Assembly: GCF_013760955.1 (NCBI RefSeq) | Contig: NZ_JACDUL010000002.1 | Location: 318,719-382,718 of the forward strand | Source of the DNA: Methanococcus maripaludis | GTDB lineage: Archaea > AGJL01 > Methanococci > Methanococcales > Methanococcaceae | DNA: 64,000 nucleotides | Direction of reading: 5' to 3' | Shown: positions 1-11,355 of the stretch, one piece after another | How the letters are laid out: each line of letters starts with the position of its first letter | Numbering within the stretch: the first letter of the stretch is position 1 | The notes under the pieces: generated by a model | Told to the model about the DNA's origin: nothing | The model's database searches: none | What the model saw: the letters and a program-made list of their open reading frames with translations, nothing else | Made by a program: the position numbers and the translations under genes

Positions 1-179
1 TCTTCTGCAATCACTTTTGGAGCTTTTTTCAGGTCTTTTGCCAATCTAAATGAAATATTTGTTGAGTAATCTCCCATGTTTATTGCAGGCGGTTCGTCAA
101 GTCTTATATCCATCTCATTTCCGGTTAATTCCTCTACCTTGTCTTTTAAGGTCGTTATTATCAAATTTTCAACGTCCAT
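1..179 (-). CDS. argS: Arginyl-tRNA synthetase, N-terminal part
   Basis: The reverse strand reads an ATG at 179 and continues off the left edge, giving about 59 residues. The start [15 protein letters not shown] and the later GDYSTN...[15 protein letters not shown] block match the N-terminal Add-1 region of archaeal ArgRS, where G-D-[YF]-[SA]-[TS]-N and the LAK...P...IA pattern are characteristic (family knowledge). The enzyme charges tRNA-Arg in the cytoplasm. The catalytic domain lies outside the window. The stretch ahead of the start (GGCGAGGC on the reverse strand) is a plausible ribosome site. It is transcribed away from the accessory island on its right. Confidence 0.85.
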
Positions 180-560
180 AATCTGCCTCGCCTTGTGTTT
201 CTATTTTAAGTTCTTAAGTCTTATATCATGCAATAACATATATTCATGGCTTTTAAATATATATAATTAAACACGAAAAAGATGTACTGTTCATTTAGAT
301 AATATAAACTTAATCATGGGGCAAACCCGGTTAGATGTAACACCCGTACAATAGAGATAAATGACCAGATTTAAAGGTTCAAATTCCCCGATTTGATTAA
401 AACGGATGGAAAACGCTTATTTAATTTAAGGCTATTTTTAGAAATAAAGCAATATCTGACGATTAATTGTATAAAAACAGGTTATTTTTAATATATTTAA
501 AATGGGCTTCTTTTGGAAACCCTTATTTTTTTTCACATAAAGGTCGCCTATCTATTAATA

Positions 561-1158
561 TCCCTGACGGGAGGGTGTTCCAAGTGGCTCGCCTCACACC
601 TTTTTCTAGGTGTGGGCTTTCCACACAATTTGGGAGAATGACCACAGAACACCTAAGTCTGAGGTATAGCGGATTTATGAATGGCTTCGCCATTTATTCA
701 TTTAAGAATGCGTTAAAGTAATCGATTAAAAATGATTCGATTGCTCTCGCAGGTCGCGACCTGCTCAGGAGTTTCTCGAACTTTCGAAGATTGATTTTAT
801 TTTTTAATTTGTTCGCAAGTTCTCCGAAACCCCGCGCAATCTGGGAACTGTTCAGAGGTCAAGCCATAGCTTATACACCCCTTCGGGTGTATGTCGCCAT
901 ATGGCGAATTTTGTGCTTAGGGCGGATTGATTTTATCGCCCTTCGGGCTAATGCTACGGTAATACGGTTTAGACTGCCCTTTGACCATCTAAACCGATTT
1001 TCCGCCTTTATCGGGTTTTGCCCTTCGGGTTCCCTCGCTAGACTCGGCAAAACCTCGTAAAGCGAAAAATCTTAATGGTTTAGCTGGAGCCAAAGGTCGG
1101 AGAGAATACTAATCCCTACGGGGTTTAATTTGTATATTGGATTTTATTCCCTTCGGGG
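561..1158. repeat. Dense array of GC-rich hairpins in a gene-free zone
   Basis: The gene-free stretch 180-1576 contains, between 561 and 1158, at least ten inverted repeats of unusual quality. They are 595-601/608-614; 680-685/689-694; the 16-bp palindrome GCAGGTCGCGACCTGC at 749-764; 873-880/885-892 (8 bp, loop CTTC); the 14-bp palindrome TCGCCATATGGCGA at 894-907; 919-924/937-942 overlapping GCCC-TTC-GGGC at 938-948; 965-973/988-996 (9 bp); 1014-1022/1046-1054 (9 bp) enclosing CCCTTCGGG; and CCC-TAC/TTC-GGG units near 1114 and 1149. The block is much richer in G+C than its surroundings. Reading frames here are interrupted by the palindromes and resemble nothing. From 180 to 560 I see nothing clear. 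From 1160 to 1576 there are only two weak inverted repeats (1374-1380/1415-1421 and 1483-1487/1493-1497). A replication origin or structured RNA is possible. Confidence 0.7.
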
Positions 1159-1576
1159 TTTTAGTAACGGGTTTTAGGTTTTGGGAGTCTTTTGGATTTT
1201 AATTTTTTGAGTTCATTGTGCCAGGTCTTGAAGAATTGTTTTGAGTTAAAAAATATTAAAGTTAGAAAATGTTTGTTAAATTGAGTAAAAAGAATAAAAA
1301 AAGTAGATAACAATGAAATAAAGAATAAATATTAAGTTGAAACAATTTAAAAAGTAAAAAATATTTTTGTGAGTACGGAGAAAACAAATCAAAAAGGTGT
1401 ATGAATCATATGAACTCCGTAGTTAAATGATTAAACATATCCAGTTTCCAAAACCAAAGCAAACCTAAACAATCCCAAAGTTGGGGAACATATCCCCGAA
1501 TAATAGTTTAATTTGAGAATATAAAAAAAGTTGTAAATCTTGAAATCTTTAAAAGTTAAAAGTTAAAAATAGATTG

Positions 1577-1972
1577 TTAAAATTCATTACAGTAAAGTAC
1601 ATAATATTCTTCAACGTCTTTTGAATAGCCTATCAAATTTCCTTTCTTTATTTCATCCATTATTTGGTCTTCTTTTATAACATATCCAGCAATAAATCTA
1701 TCAAGTTTTAGATATCCGTCCTTTAAAACTTTTGATTCTTCATAATTCAGTTCTGAAATGTGGATTTTTTGAAATTCATTAAATATTATCCTGTTATCGT
1801 CTGCGATATCAATACATAATTTTCTATAAATTATATCTTCATCGTCTGGTTTTTCCAAAGTTTCCCTAAATTCCCGCATTGCGATAAATCCGGTTTCAAG
1901 ACCATTTAATATTAGTTTTAAATGGTTTTTTTCAAGATAATCGTGATTTGAACATATATTAACTGCTTGCAT
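1577..1972 (-). CDS. Small island protein, paralogue of its neighbour
   Basis: 131 residues, function not recognised. It starts at an ATG preceded by GAGGGGAT. The C-terminal third (QIMDEIKKGNLIGYSK near residues 103-118) closely resembles the same part of the upstream gene (QIIEELKKGNVVEYSK), and the remainder aligns loosely, so the two are tandem paralogues. No membrane segment or catalytic motif is visible; the protein is acidic and probably soluble. It lies 13 bp after the upstream gene and is likely co-transcribed. It is bounded on its 3' side by the long gene-free hairpin zone. Confidence 0.6.
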   Translation of the reverse strand: MQAVNICSNHDYLEKNHLKLILNGLETGFIAMREFRETLEKPDDEDIIYRKLCIDIADDNRIIFNEFQKIHISELNYEESKVLKDGYLKLDRFIAGYVIKEDQIMDEIKKGNLIGYSKDVEEYYVLYCNEF

Positions 1973-1985
1973 TTAAATCCCCTCG

Positions 1986-2375
1986 TTAATAATTTTCAGC
2001 AGGTATCGAATAAAAAAAGTTTCTTTCCTTGCTGTATTCGACAACATTTCCTTTTTTTAATTCTTCGATAATTTGTGATTCATCTATTGCTTTTGCATCT
2101 AAAATTTGAAGAACTACTAAAGAATCATCTTTTAAAATATTTGTTGAAGTTGCTTGCAGGTCTCCGAGTTTAATTTTTTGTTTTCGTACAACATAAACAA
2201 AATCTTCTTCTTCGGAAAATACACTGTTGTCCTGATAGATTTTTGGAAATGGTTTAAAAGTTCCAACATTTTCAAAATCTTTTATCGCACACATGAATAG
2301 ATTTGATATTGCAATAATTGATTCCGGAATTCCAATTCTTTCATATTCTGCGTCTATTCCACTTTCTGCCATCAT
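1986..2375 (-). CDS. Small island protein, paralogue of its neighbour
   Basis: About 129 residues from the ATG at 2375. The frame opens at a GTG at 2384, but that GTG lies inside the ribosome site GAGGTG, so one of the two following ATGs is the likelier start. The function is not recognised. The last 45 residues match the downstream gene (pattern Q-I-I/M-x-E-x-KKGN-hydrophobic-x-YSK), marking a tandem duplication. The middle holds an acidic SEEEDF and basic KQKIK segment; no membrane segment is seen. It is first of a two-gene unit reading away from the repeat-rich stretch 2400-2838, which must hold its promoter. Confidence 0.6.
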   Translation of the reverse strand: MMAESGIDAEYERIGIPESIIAISNLFMCAIKDFENVGTFKPFPKIYQDNSVFSEEEDFVYVVRKQKIKLGDLQATSTNILKDDSLVVLQILDAKAIDESQIIEELKKGNVVEYSKERNFFYSIPAENY

Positions 2376-2487
2376 TTTTAACACCTCTTTATGCCATCTG
2401 GAATTTTAAAAAGTTTTTAACGGTTTTTAAATTTTTTTTGTTATTTTAGAGTAAGGAACATTTTTAAAAGGTTTTGAAAGTTTTAAA

Positions 2488-2797
2488 GTAATATTAATCA
2501 CCTTTTAATAAATTAATCGAAATCGGTAAATAGTACAAATTTTAAAAATTATATTGCCTCATTTCAATGAGGCGTTAGTCCGGAATACGTTGTTTTGTGG
2601 AAAAAGCCTGATTCGAATAGCTTAAAACGGGGAAATATAATTGCCTTTGAAATATTGTTTTTTTCTTTTTTGATCCCTCAATATCAACTTGATAATTTTT
2701 CCTAATGTATTGATCACTTTATTTTAATCGAAACGATCAAATACTGCAATTTTCAAAAATATTTCTGCTTTAAGGTAATCTTAAAGTTTGGAAGAGA
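2488..2797. repeat. Two imperfect ~95-bp direct repeats, each ending in a hairpin
   Basis: Copy 1 is 2488-2585 and copy 2 is 2702-2797. They share TAAT-ATT-ATCAC, then TTAATCGAAA, then AAATA-T-CAA-TTT and AAAAAT blocks in the same order. Each then runs into a perfect hairpin of different sequence: GCCTCATT/AATGAGGC at 2556-2573 in copy 1 and CTTTAAG/CTTAAAG at 2768-2786 in copy 2. GGAA follows both hairpins (2582-2585 and 2790-2793). The spacer holds a TATCAA-C-TTGATA palindrome at 2682-2694. The region separates the end of the Rep operon from the promoter side of the two paralogous small genes. Nothing protein-coding is evident in 2400-2838. Confidence 0.6.
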
Positions 2798-2838
2798 TAT
2801 CACTTGAAAATTTAAGGACGTTCATCACCGCCTTAATT

Positions 2839-3144
2839 TCAATTTTTCCAATTTCTAACCGTATAATCAATATCTACAAAGTTTTCAGATACGATATAGA
2901 ACCTGTATTTACCTTTGGCTGTTTTTCTGATTTTTAAACACATTACATTTAGTTTTTGGGTTTTTAATCCGAGTGAAAACGTTAAATCGTTATTTTCTAG
3001 TTCTTCGTCGAAATTTTTTAAATCCATAGATTTTAGAAATTCTTCGGCTCTTTTTTTGGCTTCGTCGATTAGTTCTTTTTTAACTGTTTTGAGTTCTGAA
3101 TGGGGCATTATCATGTATTGCATATTATTTGGAATTGCGATCAT
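2839..3144 (-). CDS. Hypothetical protein ending the Rep-like operon
   Basis: About 101 residues from ATG at 3144. The upstream in-frame GTG at 3153 sits in the ribosome-site stretch CGTGATATTC, so I prefer the ATG. The function is not recognised. The N-terminal half is a likely helix (ELKTVKKELIDEAKKRAEEF), and the C-terminal half looks beta-rich (YRFYIVSENFVDIDYTV). It follows the Rep-like gene by about a dozen bases, on the same strand, and is presumably the last gene of the operon. No cysteine motif or membrane segment is present. Confidence 0.6.
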   Translation of the reverse strand: MIAIPNNMQYMIMPHSELKTVKKELIDEAKKRAEEFLKSMDLKNFDEELENNDLTFSLGLKTQKLNVMCLKIRKTAKGKYRFYIVSENFVDIDYTVRNWKN

Positions 3145-3155
3145 GAATATCACGT

Positions 3156-4370
3156 TTAAAAAAACCTCTTGGAATTACAACACGGGCAGGTGTATGACCC
3201 GTCATCACTATCAAAATACATGAGCCATCCACAATTGCAAACAAAATATTTTCCAAGAACTGATTTTAAGAAATTAATCATATCGGTTTTTACGTAAACA
3301 CCCCTTTTGTCCCCTTTTTCAATTAATCCACGTTTTAAAAGTTTATTTCTTAATCCCTGATTGTCTTTATCAAAAGTCATTTCTCCAATATTGCCATAAA
3401 TTAAGAATTTCAGATAATCCTTTTCAAGATTAAAAGCTAGGGCAAATTGAGTTAGTAAATCCTCGTGGTTTAGTTTGAAAGGGGTTATTTTATCTAAACT
3501 CAATCCATAGAGTTTTAAAACATCATGAATTGCACATAAAATGTGTTGTTCTAACATTTCAGGAGTTGAAAGTTTTAGGTAATCACTTGCAAAATTTTTA
3601 TGCAGCGTTATTTCCATTCTGCAAATTCCCGGAGCTTTTTGATAGAACTTCAATTGAGATTTTATTTTTTTAGAATTTTTGTTAAAGTACATAGTTCTTG
3701 TTAAATCGGAATGTTTGACTACTGATTTACATTTTGCAACATCTGAAAGCCATTCATACTCCATGACATCCCTATGAAGATATTCGCAAGGAATTTCTAT
3801 TGATTTTGGTGTAACGTCAATTTTTGTTAATTCGTAGTTAAACAGCTTTTTAATTAATTTTTGGTATTCTCTTCTAATTTCAAGGCATGATATATAGTAG
3901 AGATGTGCAAAATCTTTTAAAAGTTGTTTATTGTCCGTGTAATCGACAGGTAGAAAGTTTGTATCGTGAAAACCATAGTTTGGTTTTTTGATATTTTGCT
4001 TTTTCCGGTAGTATTTGAGCATATTAACGTAAACTATTGCCATGTGTGGCTCTCTCATGGATATCTGCATCCATGCAATATTTTCGCCCTCAAAATTTTC
4101 TAAGGGAAATTGTAAACCCGAAGTATGACCCCGTTTGTCTTCTGTCCTACATTTAAAGTGTTCCCATTTTTGATAAACGTCTTTTCTGTAAGTTTCTGAA
4201 CCTTTTGGAATGGAATTATTTCTTTTCCATTCATCGATTTGTTTGTGTATCTCGTCAGAATATACTGTAAACGTACATCTATCAAGTGTTATTCTCGGGT
4301 CATTTAGTGTTGGATATTTCGGGTTTACGTTTTCATGAATTTTGGGTCTTAATTCGGCTAATGCTTCCAT
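3156..4370 (-). CDS. Plasmid/phage Rep-like protein with C-terminal zinc ribbon
   Basis: About 404 residues from the ATG at 4370. The frame extends to a TTG at 4394, but the site GGAGAAGGT ahead of the ATG and the TAAA-ATG junction with the preceding gene favour 4370. The block LKFYQKAPGICRMEITL near residues 243-259 fits the K-x-Y-x-K...R-x-E signature of replication initiators of the filamentous-phage gene II / phage CRI type (family knowledge, matched by eye). No HUH motif is apparent. The end carries CxC...CxxC (CNCGWLMYF and CPCCNSKRFF), a probable zinc ribbon. It is the largest gene of the minus-strand operon. The replication role is inference; a different DNA-binding protein remains possible. 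Confidence 0.5.
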   Translation of the reverse strand: MEALAELRPKIHENVNPKYPTLNDPRITLDRCTFTVYSDEIHKQIDEWKRNNSIPKGSETYRKDVYQKWEHFKCRTEDKRGHTSGLQFPLENFEGENIAWMQISMREPHMAIVYVNMLKYYRKKQNIKKPNYGFHDTNFLPVDYTDNKQLLKDFAHLYYISCLEIRREYQKLIKKLFNYELTKIDVTPKSIEIPCEYLHRDVMEYEWLSDVAKCKSVVKHSDLTRTMYFNKNSKKIKSQLKFYQKAPGICRMEITLHKNFASDYLKLSTPEMLEQHILCAIHDVLKLYGLSLDKITPFKLNHEDLLTQFALAFNLEKDYLKFLIYGNIGEMTFDKDNQGLRNKLLKRGLIEKGDKRGVYVKTDMINFLKSVLGKYFVCNCGWLMYFDSDDGSYTCPCCNSKRFF

Positions 4371-4371
4371 T

Positions 4372-4812
4372 TTAAAGACCTTCTCCGAAAACAATTTCTT
4401 TTACTAAATCTTCGTTTAGATTCATGACTTTTGCATTTTCTAAAATCTGAGTTTTACTCATTCCCCCATTTTTGAGGAGTTTTAAGTTTTCTATGTTTTC
4501 AATATCTGCGTAATAGTCTACAAGTTGTTTTACTTCTTCATTTTCTTGATATTCGTTTATTATTGTTTTTATATCAAGATATGAGAACTGTAAAAAGCCG
4601 TAGTTTTTTGTACCGCCTGAAATATTAATCCTGCCTTTTGCTTTCAAAGATTTGATATAATCTTTATCGGGATATCCTTTTGAATTTTTGATAATATTTC
4701 CCTTAGCGTCCTTTTTGTCTATGGCTTCAGTTCCGGGAAAAAGTTTCACTGACCCGTGAGGGAGCTGAATTTCTATAACTTCTGGAATCTGTTCTAGGTT
4801 CGGGGCTTCCAT
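4372..4812 (-). CDS. Hypothetical protein of the Rep-like operon
   Basis: 146 residues from an ATG preceded by AAGGTGTTAGGAT. The product is not recognised. It has a charged middle (KKDAKGNIIKNSKGYPDKDY) and a C-terminal helical part with MSKTQILENAKVMNLNEDLV, which could be a small helix-turn-helix-like or protein-contact segment. Its first 86 bases overlap the end of the preceding gene in another frame. Its stop is one base from the ATG of the Rep-like gene, so translation is probably coupled. A role in copy control or replication is a guess from position only. Confidence 0.55.
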   Translation of the reverse strand: MEAPNLEQIPEVIEIQLPHGSVKLFPGTEAIDKKDAKGNIIKNSKGYPDKDYIKSLKAKGRINISGGTKNYGFLQFSYLDIKTIINEYQENEEVKQLVDYYADIENIENLKLLKNGGMSKTQILENAKVMNLNEDLVKEIVFGEGL

Positions 4813-5077
4813 ATCCTAACACCTTGATTTCTGTTTTCAATAATGTTTTTTTAACCTCGATTGTGTCATCTCTTGAAAGATTGAGGTGTATATCGAAGTA
4901 GAAATAGTATTTATCTTTTTTTTCGTCTTCTGCAATGGCTTTGTTCATCTCAACAGTCATGATTTTTTTAATCTGATAATTCATGTCTTGAATTTCTTTT
5001 GAAACTGGAGCAGTTATCGGAGTTGAGAGAATTTTTAATTTTTTTGGAAATATTGTGGCTTTGAATGTTTGATACAT
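4727..5077 (-). CDS. Hypothetical protein of the Rep-like operon
   Basis: 116 residues; its ATG touches the TAA of the preceding small gene (TAAATG), with the weak site CCGTGAT ahead. The product is not recognised. The body reads as alternating strands (KYYFYFDIHLNLSRDDTIEV). The last 30 residues are basic, serine/arginine-rich and low in complexity, and lie wholly within the 86-bp overlap with the next gene, so the tail may be unconstrained. Co-transcription with the genes on both sides is near certain from the spacing. Confidence 0.5.
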   Translation of the reverse strand: MYQTFKATIFPKKLKILSTPITAPVSKEIQDMNYQIKKIMTVEMNKAIAEDEKKDKYYFYFDIHLNLSRDDTIEVKKTLLKTEIKVLGYGSPEPRTDSRSYRNSAPSRVSETFSRN

Positions 5078-5233
5078 TTAATCACGGTTTTTTACCTCCG
5101 AATCTTTGAGGATTGTTAAAATGTATTCTTTTCCCAAATATTCTCTAGGACATGGCGCTCTTGCTGAATTTCCGTGTTCTTTAATTCTTCCGGTGAATGT
5201 TGTGCTTTTTACTCCATTTGATTTGATGTTCAT
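5078..5233 (-). CDS. DUF2080-like small protein
   Basis: 51 residues from an ATG with a textbook ribosome site (AAAGGAGGT). The core KEHGNSARAPCPREYLGKEY fits the pattern of the DUF2080 family, short archaeal proteins often found with transposons and other mobile DNA: G-N-S-A, a P-[KR]-x-[YW]-[LI]-G-K turn, then beta strands. It resembles AbrB/SpoVT-type swapped-hairpin DNA-binding folds (inference). It is the first gene of the Rep-like operon, so a role as operon repressor or partition/copy-control factor is possible. The next gene starts immediately at its stop codon. Confidence 0.65.
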   Translation of the reverse strand: MNIKSNGVKSTTFTGRIKEHGNSARAPCPREYLGKEYILTILKDSEVKNRD

Positions 5234-5271
5234 GTGGGTTTACCTCCTTTTTATAAGTCAATACCCTAAAA

Positions 5272-5387
5272 GATATTGATTGTATTTTAACAACTTATTG
5301 TATAATTAAACGAGTATTTAAATGTTGTTGTTTTTTAACAATCGATATCATAAAAACAATTTAAAATAGATATAGATGGATATCCAT
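5272..5387. promoter_or_regulatory. Divergent promoter with operator-like inverted repeats
   Basis: The 182-bp gap between the minus-strand Rep-like operon and the plus-strand winged-helix gene holds two symmetrical sites. One is a 12-bp inverted repeat with one mismatch (GATATTGATTGT at 5272-5283, ACAATCGATATC at 5338-5349) bracketing AACAAC/GTTGTT. The other is the perfect 12-bp palindrome ATGGATATCCAT at 5376-5387, 28 bp ahead of the winged-helix start. Placement suggests that the regulator controls itself and the operon; that is inference. Confidence 0.55.
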
Positions 5388-5415
5388 ATTATTACAAAAA
5401 AGTGAACTGATTGTC

Positions 5416-5970
5416 ATGTTACGACTGATTGCAAAAAAGCATGTAAAAGAAATATTAAGATTATTAGAATCAAACGATGAAATGTATTTTAGTGAAATTA
5501 AAAAAGCTTTAGAACTTAATCCAAGAAATTTAACAGATTTATTAAACGAATTATACGAAAGTAAGTTAATTAATAAAAGAATAGATGAAGATAATGTTAA
5601 ACTTTCAAAAGTTTATTATAGAATTACATATGAGGGTAAACTTATTTTAGATGTCTATGAGATGCTTGAAGACTTAGAAGGAAAAACTAATTTTGTTGCT
5701 TTAATAAAATATCAGAACGAAAAACTCTTTGAAAAAATTCAAAAATTTGAAGAAGGAGATATTATTTCTGCCAGAGCTACAATAGGGCCCAATTCGGCAA
5801 TTTTAGATTTCAGATTAGTAGAAAAAGATGGGGAAAAGACACTGGAGGTAAGCGACTTCTCTAAGGGACTCGCAGAAGAACTTTTTGTATATGGTAATGA
5901 TAGGATTATAACAGTTTATGAAATTTTAAAAAAGATAGGAACAGTTGAAAACCTTTACCCTACCAAATAA
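5416..5970 (+). CDS. Winged-helix transcriptional regulator of the island
   Basis: 184 residues, start ATG with GTGA ten bases ahead. Residues 10-75 form a winged helix-turn-helix (KEILRLLESNDEMYFSEIKKALELNPRNLTDLLNEL then a wing with YYRITYEGK), like HxlR/ArsR-type archaeal regulators. The rest is a longer alpha/beta domain (IISARATIGPNSAILDFRLVEKDG) that I do not recognise and that may sense a ligand or partner. It is divergent from the Rep-like operon, with palindromes between them, so it is probably the repressor governing plasmid functions. No membrane segment or zinc motif is present. Confidence 0.75.
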   Translation: MLRLIAKKHVKEILRLLESNDEMYFSEIKKALELNPRNLTDLLNELYESKLINKRIDEDNVKLSKVYYRITYEGKLILDVYEMLEDLEGKTNFVALIKYQNEKLFEKIQKFEEGDIISARATIGPNSAILDFRLVEKDGEKTLEVSDFSKGLAEELFVYGNDRIITVYEILKKIGTVENLYPTK

Positions 5971-6068
5971 CGATATTTTTCTATTTTTCGGATTTAAAAG
6001 CGGTTGATTTGTTATTTAAGATTGATTTATGTTTATTAAGTGGGGAAAAATAAATTAATGGTGGGAAA

Positions 6069-7969: not shown

Positions 7970-8248
7970 ATGGTATCAAAAATATATCTTGAAAATTTAA
8001 AAGTTGGGACAAAGATTAAAATGAATATTGAAACTAGAATAAGAAAATATTTTAAAAAAGACATTTCACACATGCTGTTTAGTGTTCTTTCAGTAATGCT
8101 TTTAACATTTATTGTTTTAAATGTATTTCAATTAGTTATAGTTCGAAATCCGTTTTTAAATGAACTATTGCATAATCTTGATATTTTAACAGGCTTTTTC
8201 ATGGTCGTGTCAGCAATTGGAATTGTCGTTATGGAGATTATTTTTTAA
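7970..8248 (+). CDS. Small two-TM protein, doubtful
   Basis: The frame is open from a TTG at 7946. ATGs occur at 7970 and 8021, none with a good ribosome site, so the start is uncertain (92 or 75 residues). Two hydrophobic helices (MLFSVLSVMLLTFIVLNVFQLVIV and a C-terminal one ending VVMEIIF) follow a basic leader (RIRKYFKKD). The stop codon falls inside the 47-bp repeat described at 8244-8290. It could be a real small membrane protein, or a remnant trimmed by a recombination event at that repeat. From 7728 to 7945 I see only AT-rich sequence with a GTATC/GATAC hairpin. Confidence 0.35.
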   Translation: MVSKIYLENLKVGTKIKMNIETRIRKYFKKDISHMLFSVLSVMLLTFIVLNVFQLVIVRNPFLNELLHNLDILTGFFMVVSAIGIVVMEIIF

Positions 8249-8290
8249 AAAAATAAAGTTTAGAAATTAATTTCCATTACTCTTTGATAC
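8244..8290. repeat. Copy 1 of 47-bp repeat (integrase 3' end), candidate att site
   Basis: This 47-bp stretch matches 10491-10537 with at most three differences: 13 identical bases (TTTAAAAAAATAA), three variable, then 31 identical. The second copy covers the last ten codons of the integrase gene, its stop and 16 bases beyond. Within the identical part lies a perfect 12-bp palindrome GAAATTAATTTC (8263-8274). Identity beyond the coding end, with drop-off farther into the gene, argues for a recombination site rather than mere gene remnant. Confidence 0.7.
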
Positions 8291-8320
8291 CATCTTTAAA
8301 GAGCCTGTTTATTTATGCTA
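8260..8320 (-). pseudogene. Decayed C-terminus of a tyrosine integrase
   Basis: Read on the minus strand this stretch gives N-K-Q-A-L-stop-R-W-Y-Q-R-V-M-E-I-N-F-stop. The intact integrase ends NKEALQREYQRVMEINF. Upstream of this the similarity vanishes, so only about the last 17 codons survive and they contain an in-frame stop. It is either a remnant of an older integrase or the by-product of integration at the gene's 3' end. Confidence 0.7.
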
Positions 8321-10490: not shown

Positions 10491-10537
10491 TTTAAAAAAA
10501 TAAGAATTAGAAATTAATTTCCATTACTCTTTGATAC
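10491..10537. repeat. Copy 2 of 47-bp repeat (integrase 3' end)
   Basis: This is the partner of the copy at 8244-8290. It contains the integrase stop codon, its last ten codons and 16 downstream bases, with the 12-bp palindrome GAAATTAATTTC at 10510-10521. The interval between the copies is 2.2 kb and carries the toxin-antitoxin-like pair and the structured gene-free zone. Confidence 0.7.
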
Positions 10538-11355
10538 TCTCTTTGCAGAGCTTCTTTGTTTTTGTGCAGATATATCGAAGTTGTGGATAAATCTTCATGA
10601 CCCAAAATTAAAGAGAGTGATTTTAAGTCAATTCCACGTTCTAACATGCTTGTAGCAAATGTATGTCTTAGAATGTGGGGCGTTATCCTAATATGTATGT
10701 TTGGAGCTACTTCGTTAATGTATTCTTTATATAATGTTAGACTTCTCTGTGAAAAATGTCCCCTGTAAACTCCAAGAAATAAATTATCACATTTTGGATC
10801 TCGATAACTTCTTTCCTTGATATATTCCCTTAAGTGAAATGCCAAATCCCTATCAAAAAATACATATCTATCTTTTTTACCTTTTCCAGAACCGATAAAT
10901 GCAATTTTTGAATCCAAATCTACATCTTGAACTTTGAGGTTTACAAGTTCAGATATTCGAACTCCGGTTTTAAGGATAAACATAGTAATTACATAGTAGT
11001 CGTATCTTTTGATATTTGATAAAAGATAGTTTGCTTGGGAAGTAGTTAAATAATTTCTTTCCTTTTTTTCACGTCTGAGGGTCTTTAAAAACTTTTTAAC
11101 TGGATTGTCCAGTAAATATTTTTCTTCAATTCCCCAGTCATAAAATCGGCTTACTGTTCCAAGTACTGACATTTTACTATTTTTAGTTGCTTTGTGATTT
11201 GTATAAAATAAAATGACATCATTTACCATGACATCTCGCCATCTTTTATTGGCATACTTTTGGAAAGTTCTTAATCCATATTTATACGAGTTTATTGTGG
11301 ATTTAGAAAGTCCTGTACAAAATTCTAAGTATCTTTTAGAGATTTCATCTTGCAT
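10507..11355 (-). CDS. Tyrosine recombinase/integrase
   Basis: 282 residues, ATG with ACAGGTG ahead. The N-terminal SAM-like core-binding domain (residues 1-85: STINSYKYGLRTFQKYA) is followed by the catalytic domain. The catalytic residues are recognisable: Arg in TGVRISEL, a beta-hairpin Lys in GKGKKDR, H-x-x-R in TPHILRHTFATS, His in LGHEDL, and the nucleophile Tyr in TTSIYLH. It is full length and apparently intact, of the XerC/D-like archaeal type. It presumably integrates and excises the island. It lies 15 bases after a small DNA-binding-like gene. Its last 31 bases are repeated at 8260-8290, which suggests the attachment site overlaps the gene's end. Confidence 0.9.
   Translation of the reverse strand: MQDEISKRYLEFCTGLSKSTINSYKYGLRTFQKYANKRWRDVMVNDVILFYTNHKATKNSKMSVLGTVSRFYDWGIEEKYLLDNPVKKFLKTLRREKKERNYLTTSQANYLLSNIKRYDYYVITMFILKTGVRISELVNLKVQDVDLDSKIAFIGSGKGKKDRYVFFDRDLAFHLREYIKERSYRDPKCDNLFLGVYRGHFSQRSLTLYKEYINEVAPNIHIRITPHILRHTFATSMLERGIDLKSLSLILGHEDLSTTSIYLHKNKEALQREYQRVMEINF

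What the first reader, a model, noticed from the sequence alone, without database searches (positions are those of the whole stretch)
2488..2797. Imperfect direct repeats that keep a hairpin while changing its sequence
Two ~95-bp copies are related along their length, and each ends in a perfect stem at the same place, yet the stems differ in sequence (GCCTCATT/AATGAGGC against CTTTAAG/CTTAAAG). Retaining pairing while changing bases suggests selection on structure, as in a functional RNA or origin element. Their position between the Rep operon and the neighbouring genes fits either.
Basis: seen in the sequence. Interest (0 to 1): 0.68.

Follow-up and report, generated by a model that had tools for sequence, protein, structure and literature searches.

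The report
Tandem small-RNA genes in Methanococcus
The two look-alike stretches are most likely two back-to-back small RNA genes, members of an undescribed family scattered through Methanococcus genomes in which the RNA's opening hairpin is kept while its letters change.

Summary
In detail: two same-strand copies (43-nt core, 30 of 43 identical, spacing 211) each run into a perfect stem at the same offset. They are probably not origin repeats. A profile built from 32 related units (genomes G000, G001, G004), without the window's two, ranks these two places first and second in both strands of the window. With four units found later, 38 were scored. Read on the window's + strand, units show a TATA-like box about 27 nt before a 5' hairpin, then a variable body, often a second hairpin, and mostly a U-tract: the layout of a short archaeal RNA gene. 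32 of 38 carry the 5' stem, in 22 sequences; non-Watson-Crick pairs are G·U 25 times, A·C never, so the pairing is selected in RNA made from the + strand. Arms fit their own partner better than others' (0 of 100,000 permutations). Only 10 of 38 units lie within 5 kb of a Rep match. No Rfam match. Predicted RNAs here: about 2556-2671 and 2767-2847. Caveats: these two are divergent members with weak TATA boxes and no G-run at the family's place; transcription and targets are untested. A separate hairpin-rich stretch (667-947) is the better origin candidate.

The parts
2513..2555 (+). promoter-like core of unit B; TATA-like box about 2525-2532 (weak)
   Evidence: Repeat core; top hit of the profile built without the window units. 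Against: the best TATA-matrix score of this unit, 3.5 bits, lies elsewhere (index 59), so the box itself scores lower still, below the background 95th percentile of 6.6.
2556..2573 (+). 5' stem-loop of predicted RNA B
   Evidence: Sequence; stem-loop better than shuffles, z -2.22
2556..2671 (+). predicted small RNA B; U-tract about 2658-2671
   Evidence: Start from TATA-to-stem spacing, end from the U-tract: inferred. Whole-RNA fold no better than shuffles, z -0.24.
2724..2766 (+). promoter-like core of unit A; TATA-like box about 2736-2743 (weak)
   Evidence: Repeat core; second hit of the profile built without the window units; matrix score 4.5 bits at the family's usual place, below the background 95th percentile of 6.6.
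2767..2787 (+). 5' stem-loop of predicted RNA A
   Evidence: Stem 2768-2786 in sequence; stem-loop better than shuffles, z -2.40
2767..2847 (+). predicted small RNA A with a second hairpin 2804-2842 and a five-T tract 2843-2847, tail-to-tail with the Rep operon's last ORF (ends 2839)
   Evidence: Fold z -1.96 on the + strand, but -2.83 on the - strand; ends inferred.

Best explanation
The region holds two tandem small-RNA genes on the + strand, divergent members of an undescribed Methanococcus family. Each unit is its own transcription unit: a TBP/TFB-type promoter, with a TATA-like box about 27 nt before the start, fires an RNA of roughly 80-120 nt that opens with a stem-loop, carries a variable body often with a second hairpin, and mostly ends at a U-tract. 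Shown by computation: family membership, kept and covarying 5' stems, RNA polarity from G·U pairs, a usual TATA-to-stem spacing, enrichment of U-tracts. Inferred: that the two window units are transcribed, where they start and stop, that the 5' stem shields the RNA from 5' decay, and that the body acts in trans on other RNAs. On this view the shared sequence is kept because it is promoter, and the stem changes letters freely because only its pairing matters.
For: Profile without the window units ranks them first and second in the window. TATA-like best 12-mer at indices 35-38 in 24 of 34 units, 19 of 34 above the background 95th percentile, with a matrix trained on 16 of 30 tRNA upstreams of the same genome. 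Stem in 28 of 34 units with G·U 22, A·C 0; 25 of 34 at or below p 0.05 against shuffles; with four later units 32 of 38, 22 distinct stems, G·U 25 and A·C 0 (14 and 0 over distinct stems). Arms fit own partners, 0 of 100,000 permutations. All four later units have the stem at the expected place. A run of six or more T at 75-140 nt in 26 of 38 units against 14.7% of random 65-nt pieces of the window, and a G-run at 23-36 nt in 23 of 38 against 1.3%. In class R1, 95.2% of cells pair against 26.6-56.0% for slid partners.
Against: No expression data. Both window units have TATA scores below the background 95th percentile, neither has the G-run at 23-36 nt (unit B has one at 78), class model R1 finds them only at chance level, RNA B folds no better than shuffles and RNA A folds slightly better on the minus strand. 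Two of 38 units have broken stems. Shuffling 3' letters in R1 lowers pairing only from 95.2% to 93.4%. The search that gathered the family was seeded with the window units, and constancy of spacing partly reflects common descent.
Confidence: 0.7

Rival explanations
1. Origin element: hairpin-bearing repeats that the neighbouring Rep binds or nicks as DNA.
For: Place beside a Rep operon; 4 of 11 Rep loci fetched carry units, and the 10 units within 5 kb of a Rep match lie on the strand opposite to Rep.
Against: 28 of 38 units are more than 5 kb from any Rep match. Stem sequence differs freely and the wobble pairs are of RNA type. Another noncoding stretch, 667-947, is what Rep-bearing regions share.
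Confidence: 0.08
2. Cis-acting 5' leaders: promoter plus leader hairpin of downstream mRNAs rather than free RNAs.
For: Three family units lead straight into a 96-aa WYL-like ORF.
Against: In the window no + strand ORF of at least 50 aa starts close behind either stem; the nearest, 2915-3223, lies antisense to minus-strand ORFs. A run of T follows at 75-140 nt in 26 of 38 units.
Confidence: 0.1
3. Terminators or 3' structures of the minus-strand Rep operon, read on the minus strand.
For: The hairpin 2804-2842 lies at the Rep operon's end and folds well on the minus strand (z -2.83).
Against: Wobble pairs across the family point to the other strand (G·U 25, A·C 0), units occur in many contexts, and it leaves the promoter-like core and unit B unexplained.
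Confidence: 0.05
4. Relics: once-active family members, now decaying in this island.
For: Weak TATA scores and no G-run at the usual place; class model R1 does not see them.
Against: Both stems are perfect, which decay would soon spoil.
Confidence: 0.15

Closest known systems
Small regulatory RNA genes of archaea as a class (intergenic sRNAs of Haloferax and Methanosarcina; recalled)
   Same: Own promoter, short structured noncoding body, U-rich end
   Different: No match to a described family; one promoter-plus-stem module in about 40 copies, often in tandem, with free choice of stem letters
Putative origins of archaeal integrated plasmids, such as the pT26-2 family (PMC6972569, passages seen)
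   Same: Noncoding, repeat-bearing, beside a replication gene
   Different: Most units far from any Rep match; RNA-type wobble; that paper reports no conserved consensus among its putative origins, whereas these units share one. Membership of this island in that plasmid family was not tested
pURB500 plasmid of M. maripaludis C5 (its ORF-less regions recalled)
   Same: Methanococcus mobile element with noncoding regions
   Different: No unit found in it

Membership tests
The Methanococcus promoter-plus-stem RNA family described here | Recognised by a profile built without the window units | tested here: met
   Ranks 1 and 2 in the window
The Methanococcus promoter-plus-stem RNA family described here | 5' stem at the fixed place | tested here: met
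   Both perfect; p 0.005 each against shuffles
The Methanococcus promoter-plus-stem RNA family described here | TATA-like box about 27 nt before the stem | tested here: inconclusive
   Box-like letters in place, scores below the background 95th percentile
The Methanococcus promoter-plus-stem RNA family described here | G-run 23-36 nt after the anchor (23 of 38 units) | tested here: not met
   Absent in both window units; a common, not universal, feature
The Methanococcus promoter-plus-stem RNA family described here | Transcription as a short RNA | not testable with these tools
   No expression data on hand
Any Rfam 15 family | Gathering-score match | tested here: not met
   Window: one tRNA only; 13 loci, nearly all with family units: one tRNA only; window 2380-2860 at E up to 5: three weak matches, all far below their gathering scores
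Rep-linked replication origin | Found with Rep | tested here: not met
   10 of 38 units within 5 kb of a Rep match; 7 of 11 Rep loci fetched without a unit
Rep-linked replication origin | Supports replication | not testable with these tools
   Needs a replicon test

The most novel reading that the evidence does not exclude
Methanococcus carries a portable RNA regulon: tandem small RNAs and the mRNA of a small WYL-domain protein are fired from one shared promoter type, whose palindrome-like block between TATA box and start is that protein's operator. The G-run and the 5' stem form a common effector module of the RNAs, and mobile islands such as this one have captured copies to tap the host circuit.
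Probability: 0.12. Interest if true: 0.8.

Novelty: new variant of a known kind. Interest (0 to 1): 0.55.

Why it matters
Rfam has no match and six paper searches listed nothing like it. The case also shows how the kind of odd pair (G·U against A·C) can tell which strand is transcribed without expression data.

Tried and rejected
Origin or iteron reading: set aside for the reasons given under rivals. pURB500: no unit found (record fetched, scanned). Rep homologues in the plasmid, genome contigs and viral collections: none found, so the comparison rests on unnamed G genomes. DNA of 2400-2840 against plasmids and relatives: short AT-rich pieces, which I read mostly as noise. Exact-pattern scans of genome contigs and viral contigs: 0 matches; both patterns were narrow, so this says little. 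A 20-letter pattern of the core with up to 3 mismatches was no more frequent in the window than in shuffles (2 matches; 19 of 100 shuffles had at least 2): single sites are not significant by pattern alone.

Pairing between RNAs of one locus (a C-rich class against G-rich classes, and the window's two): z below -2 in 1 of 12 pairs, not supported. Whole-RNA folding of the window units: weak. Class model R1 on window 1-6000: chance level.

Circularity and dropped rows. The 34-unit set came from a profile whose ten seeds included both window units; removes them from the model, not from the history of the search. Model R2 (31 units, the three WYL-leader units left out) also includes the window's two and some stem columns, so the four later units are not fully independent. 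It gave matches at E up to 0.01 in 18 of 40 genomes; the 40 matches below 1e-4 all lie in G000, G001, G003 and G004. I inspected two of the weaker hits (G002, G005: no stem) and read the rest as noise without inspecting them. Of the 40, two near-identical extra copies (G000:C2:1729 and 1931) were not scored, leaving 38; a CM hit at G001:C1:1727235 was not scored either. One search used 27 of 38 units (8 of class R3 and 3 WYL leaders left out), collapsed to 14 distinct arms; window unit B scored only 0.5 there because its arm as cut needs a 2-nt loop. Two partial Rep matches (G019, G021) were not fetched.

Full report
WHAT IS THERE. The two stems are as described. They follow a shared core: 2513-2549 and 2724-2760 at 76% without gaps. 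Over 43 nt, 30 are identical, against 13.9 (sd 3.1) for random AT-rich pairs of the window, none reaching 30. The neighbouring ORFs are on the minus strand: a Rep-like operon whose last ORF ends at 2839, and two small ORFs from 2384 down. The Rep has a weak PF05144 match below Pfam's cut-off and matches in 9 of 61 genomes, own genome included. G001 has a chromosome of 1,780,761 bases, which I recall as that of M. maripaludis C5; not verified.

A FAMILY. A profile of the two window units and one unit beside the Rep of L037 found further copies in L039 and L040, three each, 137-216 nt apart. DNA from L040 found matches in 4 of 41 genomes. Scanning the fetched stretches at E 0.01 gave 34 units in G000, G001 and G004; the loci laid out are mostly intergenic places without a Rep. 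A class of 14 (R1) has its own covariance model, which matches G000, G001 and G004, plus one weak hit (E 0.0033) in G019, of 46 genomes. A sequence model of promoter plus stem gave 40 matches below E 1e-4 in four genomes: the 34, two near-identical extra copies, and four new ones, two of them in G003.

READ ON THE + STRAND. The 10 units within 5 kb of a Rep match lie on the strand opposite to it. On that strand units show a TATA-like box, a conserved block with consensus near GCNATTTTCAAAAATTATATTG, then the stem. A matrix trained on 16 of 30 tRNA upstreams of the same genome puts the best 12-mer at indices 35-38 in 24 of 34 units, and 19 of 34 beat the background 95th percentile. TATA centre to stem is about 27 nt, close to what I recall for archaeal promoters. 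A run of six or more T lies at 75-140 nt in 26 of 38 units, against 14.7% of random 65-nt pieces of the window; a run of four or more G starts at 23-36 nt in 23 of 38, against 1.3%. In R1 a second hairpin with a G-rich loop precedes the T-run.

STRUCTURE IS SELECTED, AND IT IS RNA. With a score that treats G·U and A·C alike, 28 of 34 units have a good 5' stem, with 22 G·U and 0 A·C; 25 of 34 reach p 0.05 against shuffles. With the four later units it is 32 of 38, 25 against 0, and 14 against 0 over 22 distinct stems. On the other strand every G·U would be an A·C mismatch, so the pairing belongs to RNA made from the + strand. Left arms fit their own right arms (mean 5.32 over 14 distinct arms) better than others' (3.38); 0 of 100,000 permutations reach the observed sum. 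In R1, 95.2% of cells pair against 26.6-56.0% in slid versions; against shuffled 3' letters the gain is small (93.4%; 1 of 500 shuffles as high), and 4 pairs change on both sides against 0.8. All four later units have the stem where expected; two weak hits inspected in G002 and G005 do not.

THE WINDOW UNITS. Without them, the family profile still ranks them first and second in both strands of the window. Predicted RNAs are 2556-2671 and 2767-2847. Against this: weak TATA scores, no G-run at the usual place, no recognition by model R1, RNA B folds like shuffles, and RNA A folds slightly better on the other strand. They are best called divergent members whose expression is open.

MECHANISM. Most likely each unit is transcribed alone. 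The 5' stem would protect the RNA and the body, free to change, would act on other RNAs; both points are inference. Three units lead straight into a 96-aa ORF; the one scanned is WYL-like (E 0.00036, just under Pfam's cut-off). So the same promoter type also drives an mRNA, which makes a shared regulator plausible. Pairing between RNAs of one locus was tested and not supported (1 of 12 pairs).

WHY NOT AN ORIGIN. Units are absent at E 0.01 from the fetched stretches of 7 of 11 Rep loci, and 28 of 38 units lie more than 5 kb from any Rep match. By contrast, window 667-947 is 74-75% identical to stretches in G001 (two), G004 and another place of G000 (there from 731), and window 853-1161 is 68% identical to one more in G001, in 3 of 21 genomes; each lies about 3-18 kb from a Rep match. 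That stretch is the better origin candidate, untested.

PRIOR KNOWLEDGE. No Rfam match at gathering scores, and only weak chance-like ones below. Six paper searches listed nothing on such a family; I saw their listings. I saw passages of PMC6972569 and PMC8716108; in PMC10450193 only reference-list passages matched. PMC8716108 mentions term-seq of noncoding RNAs in M. maripaludis S2, whose supplementary lists I could not open, so members of this family may already be listed there as transcripts. The library lacks most subscription papers, so absence from print is not established.

Noticed in passing
window 540-1160, core 667-947: Hairpin-rich noncoding stretch, 68-75% identical to five other places in G000, G001 and G004, each about 3-18 kb from a Rep match; candidate origin of the Rep elements.
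   Followed up: partly
window 2455-2496: 42 nt, 86% identical to DNA just behind the Rep gene of another element (G001:C1:216171-216212), before the two small minus-strand ORFs; perhaps a shared promoter or protein site.
   Followed up: no
window 8244-8317 and 10491-10564: 74-nt direct repeat, 85% identical; one copy covers the 3' end of the integrase gene (10507-11355, minus strand): a possible attachment-site pair or integrase relic.
   Followed up: no
L087 7485-7775, L088 3858-4148, L079 6677-6967: Small WYL-like ORF directly behind a family promoter, followed by a 97-101-aa ORF of no known family, in three places.
   Followed up: partly
L040 (G001:C1:910682 unit) and L076 (G000:C6:1350 unit): Class R3 RNAs with a CCCCCC hairpin loop beside class R1/R2 RNAs with G-run loops; duplex energies did not support pairing.
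   Followed up: yes
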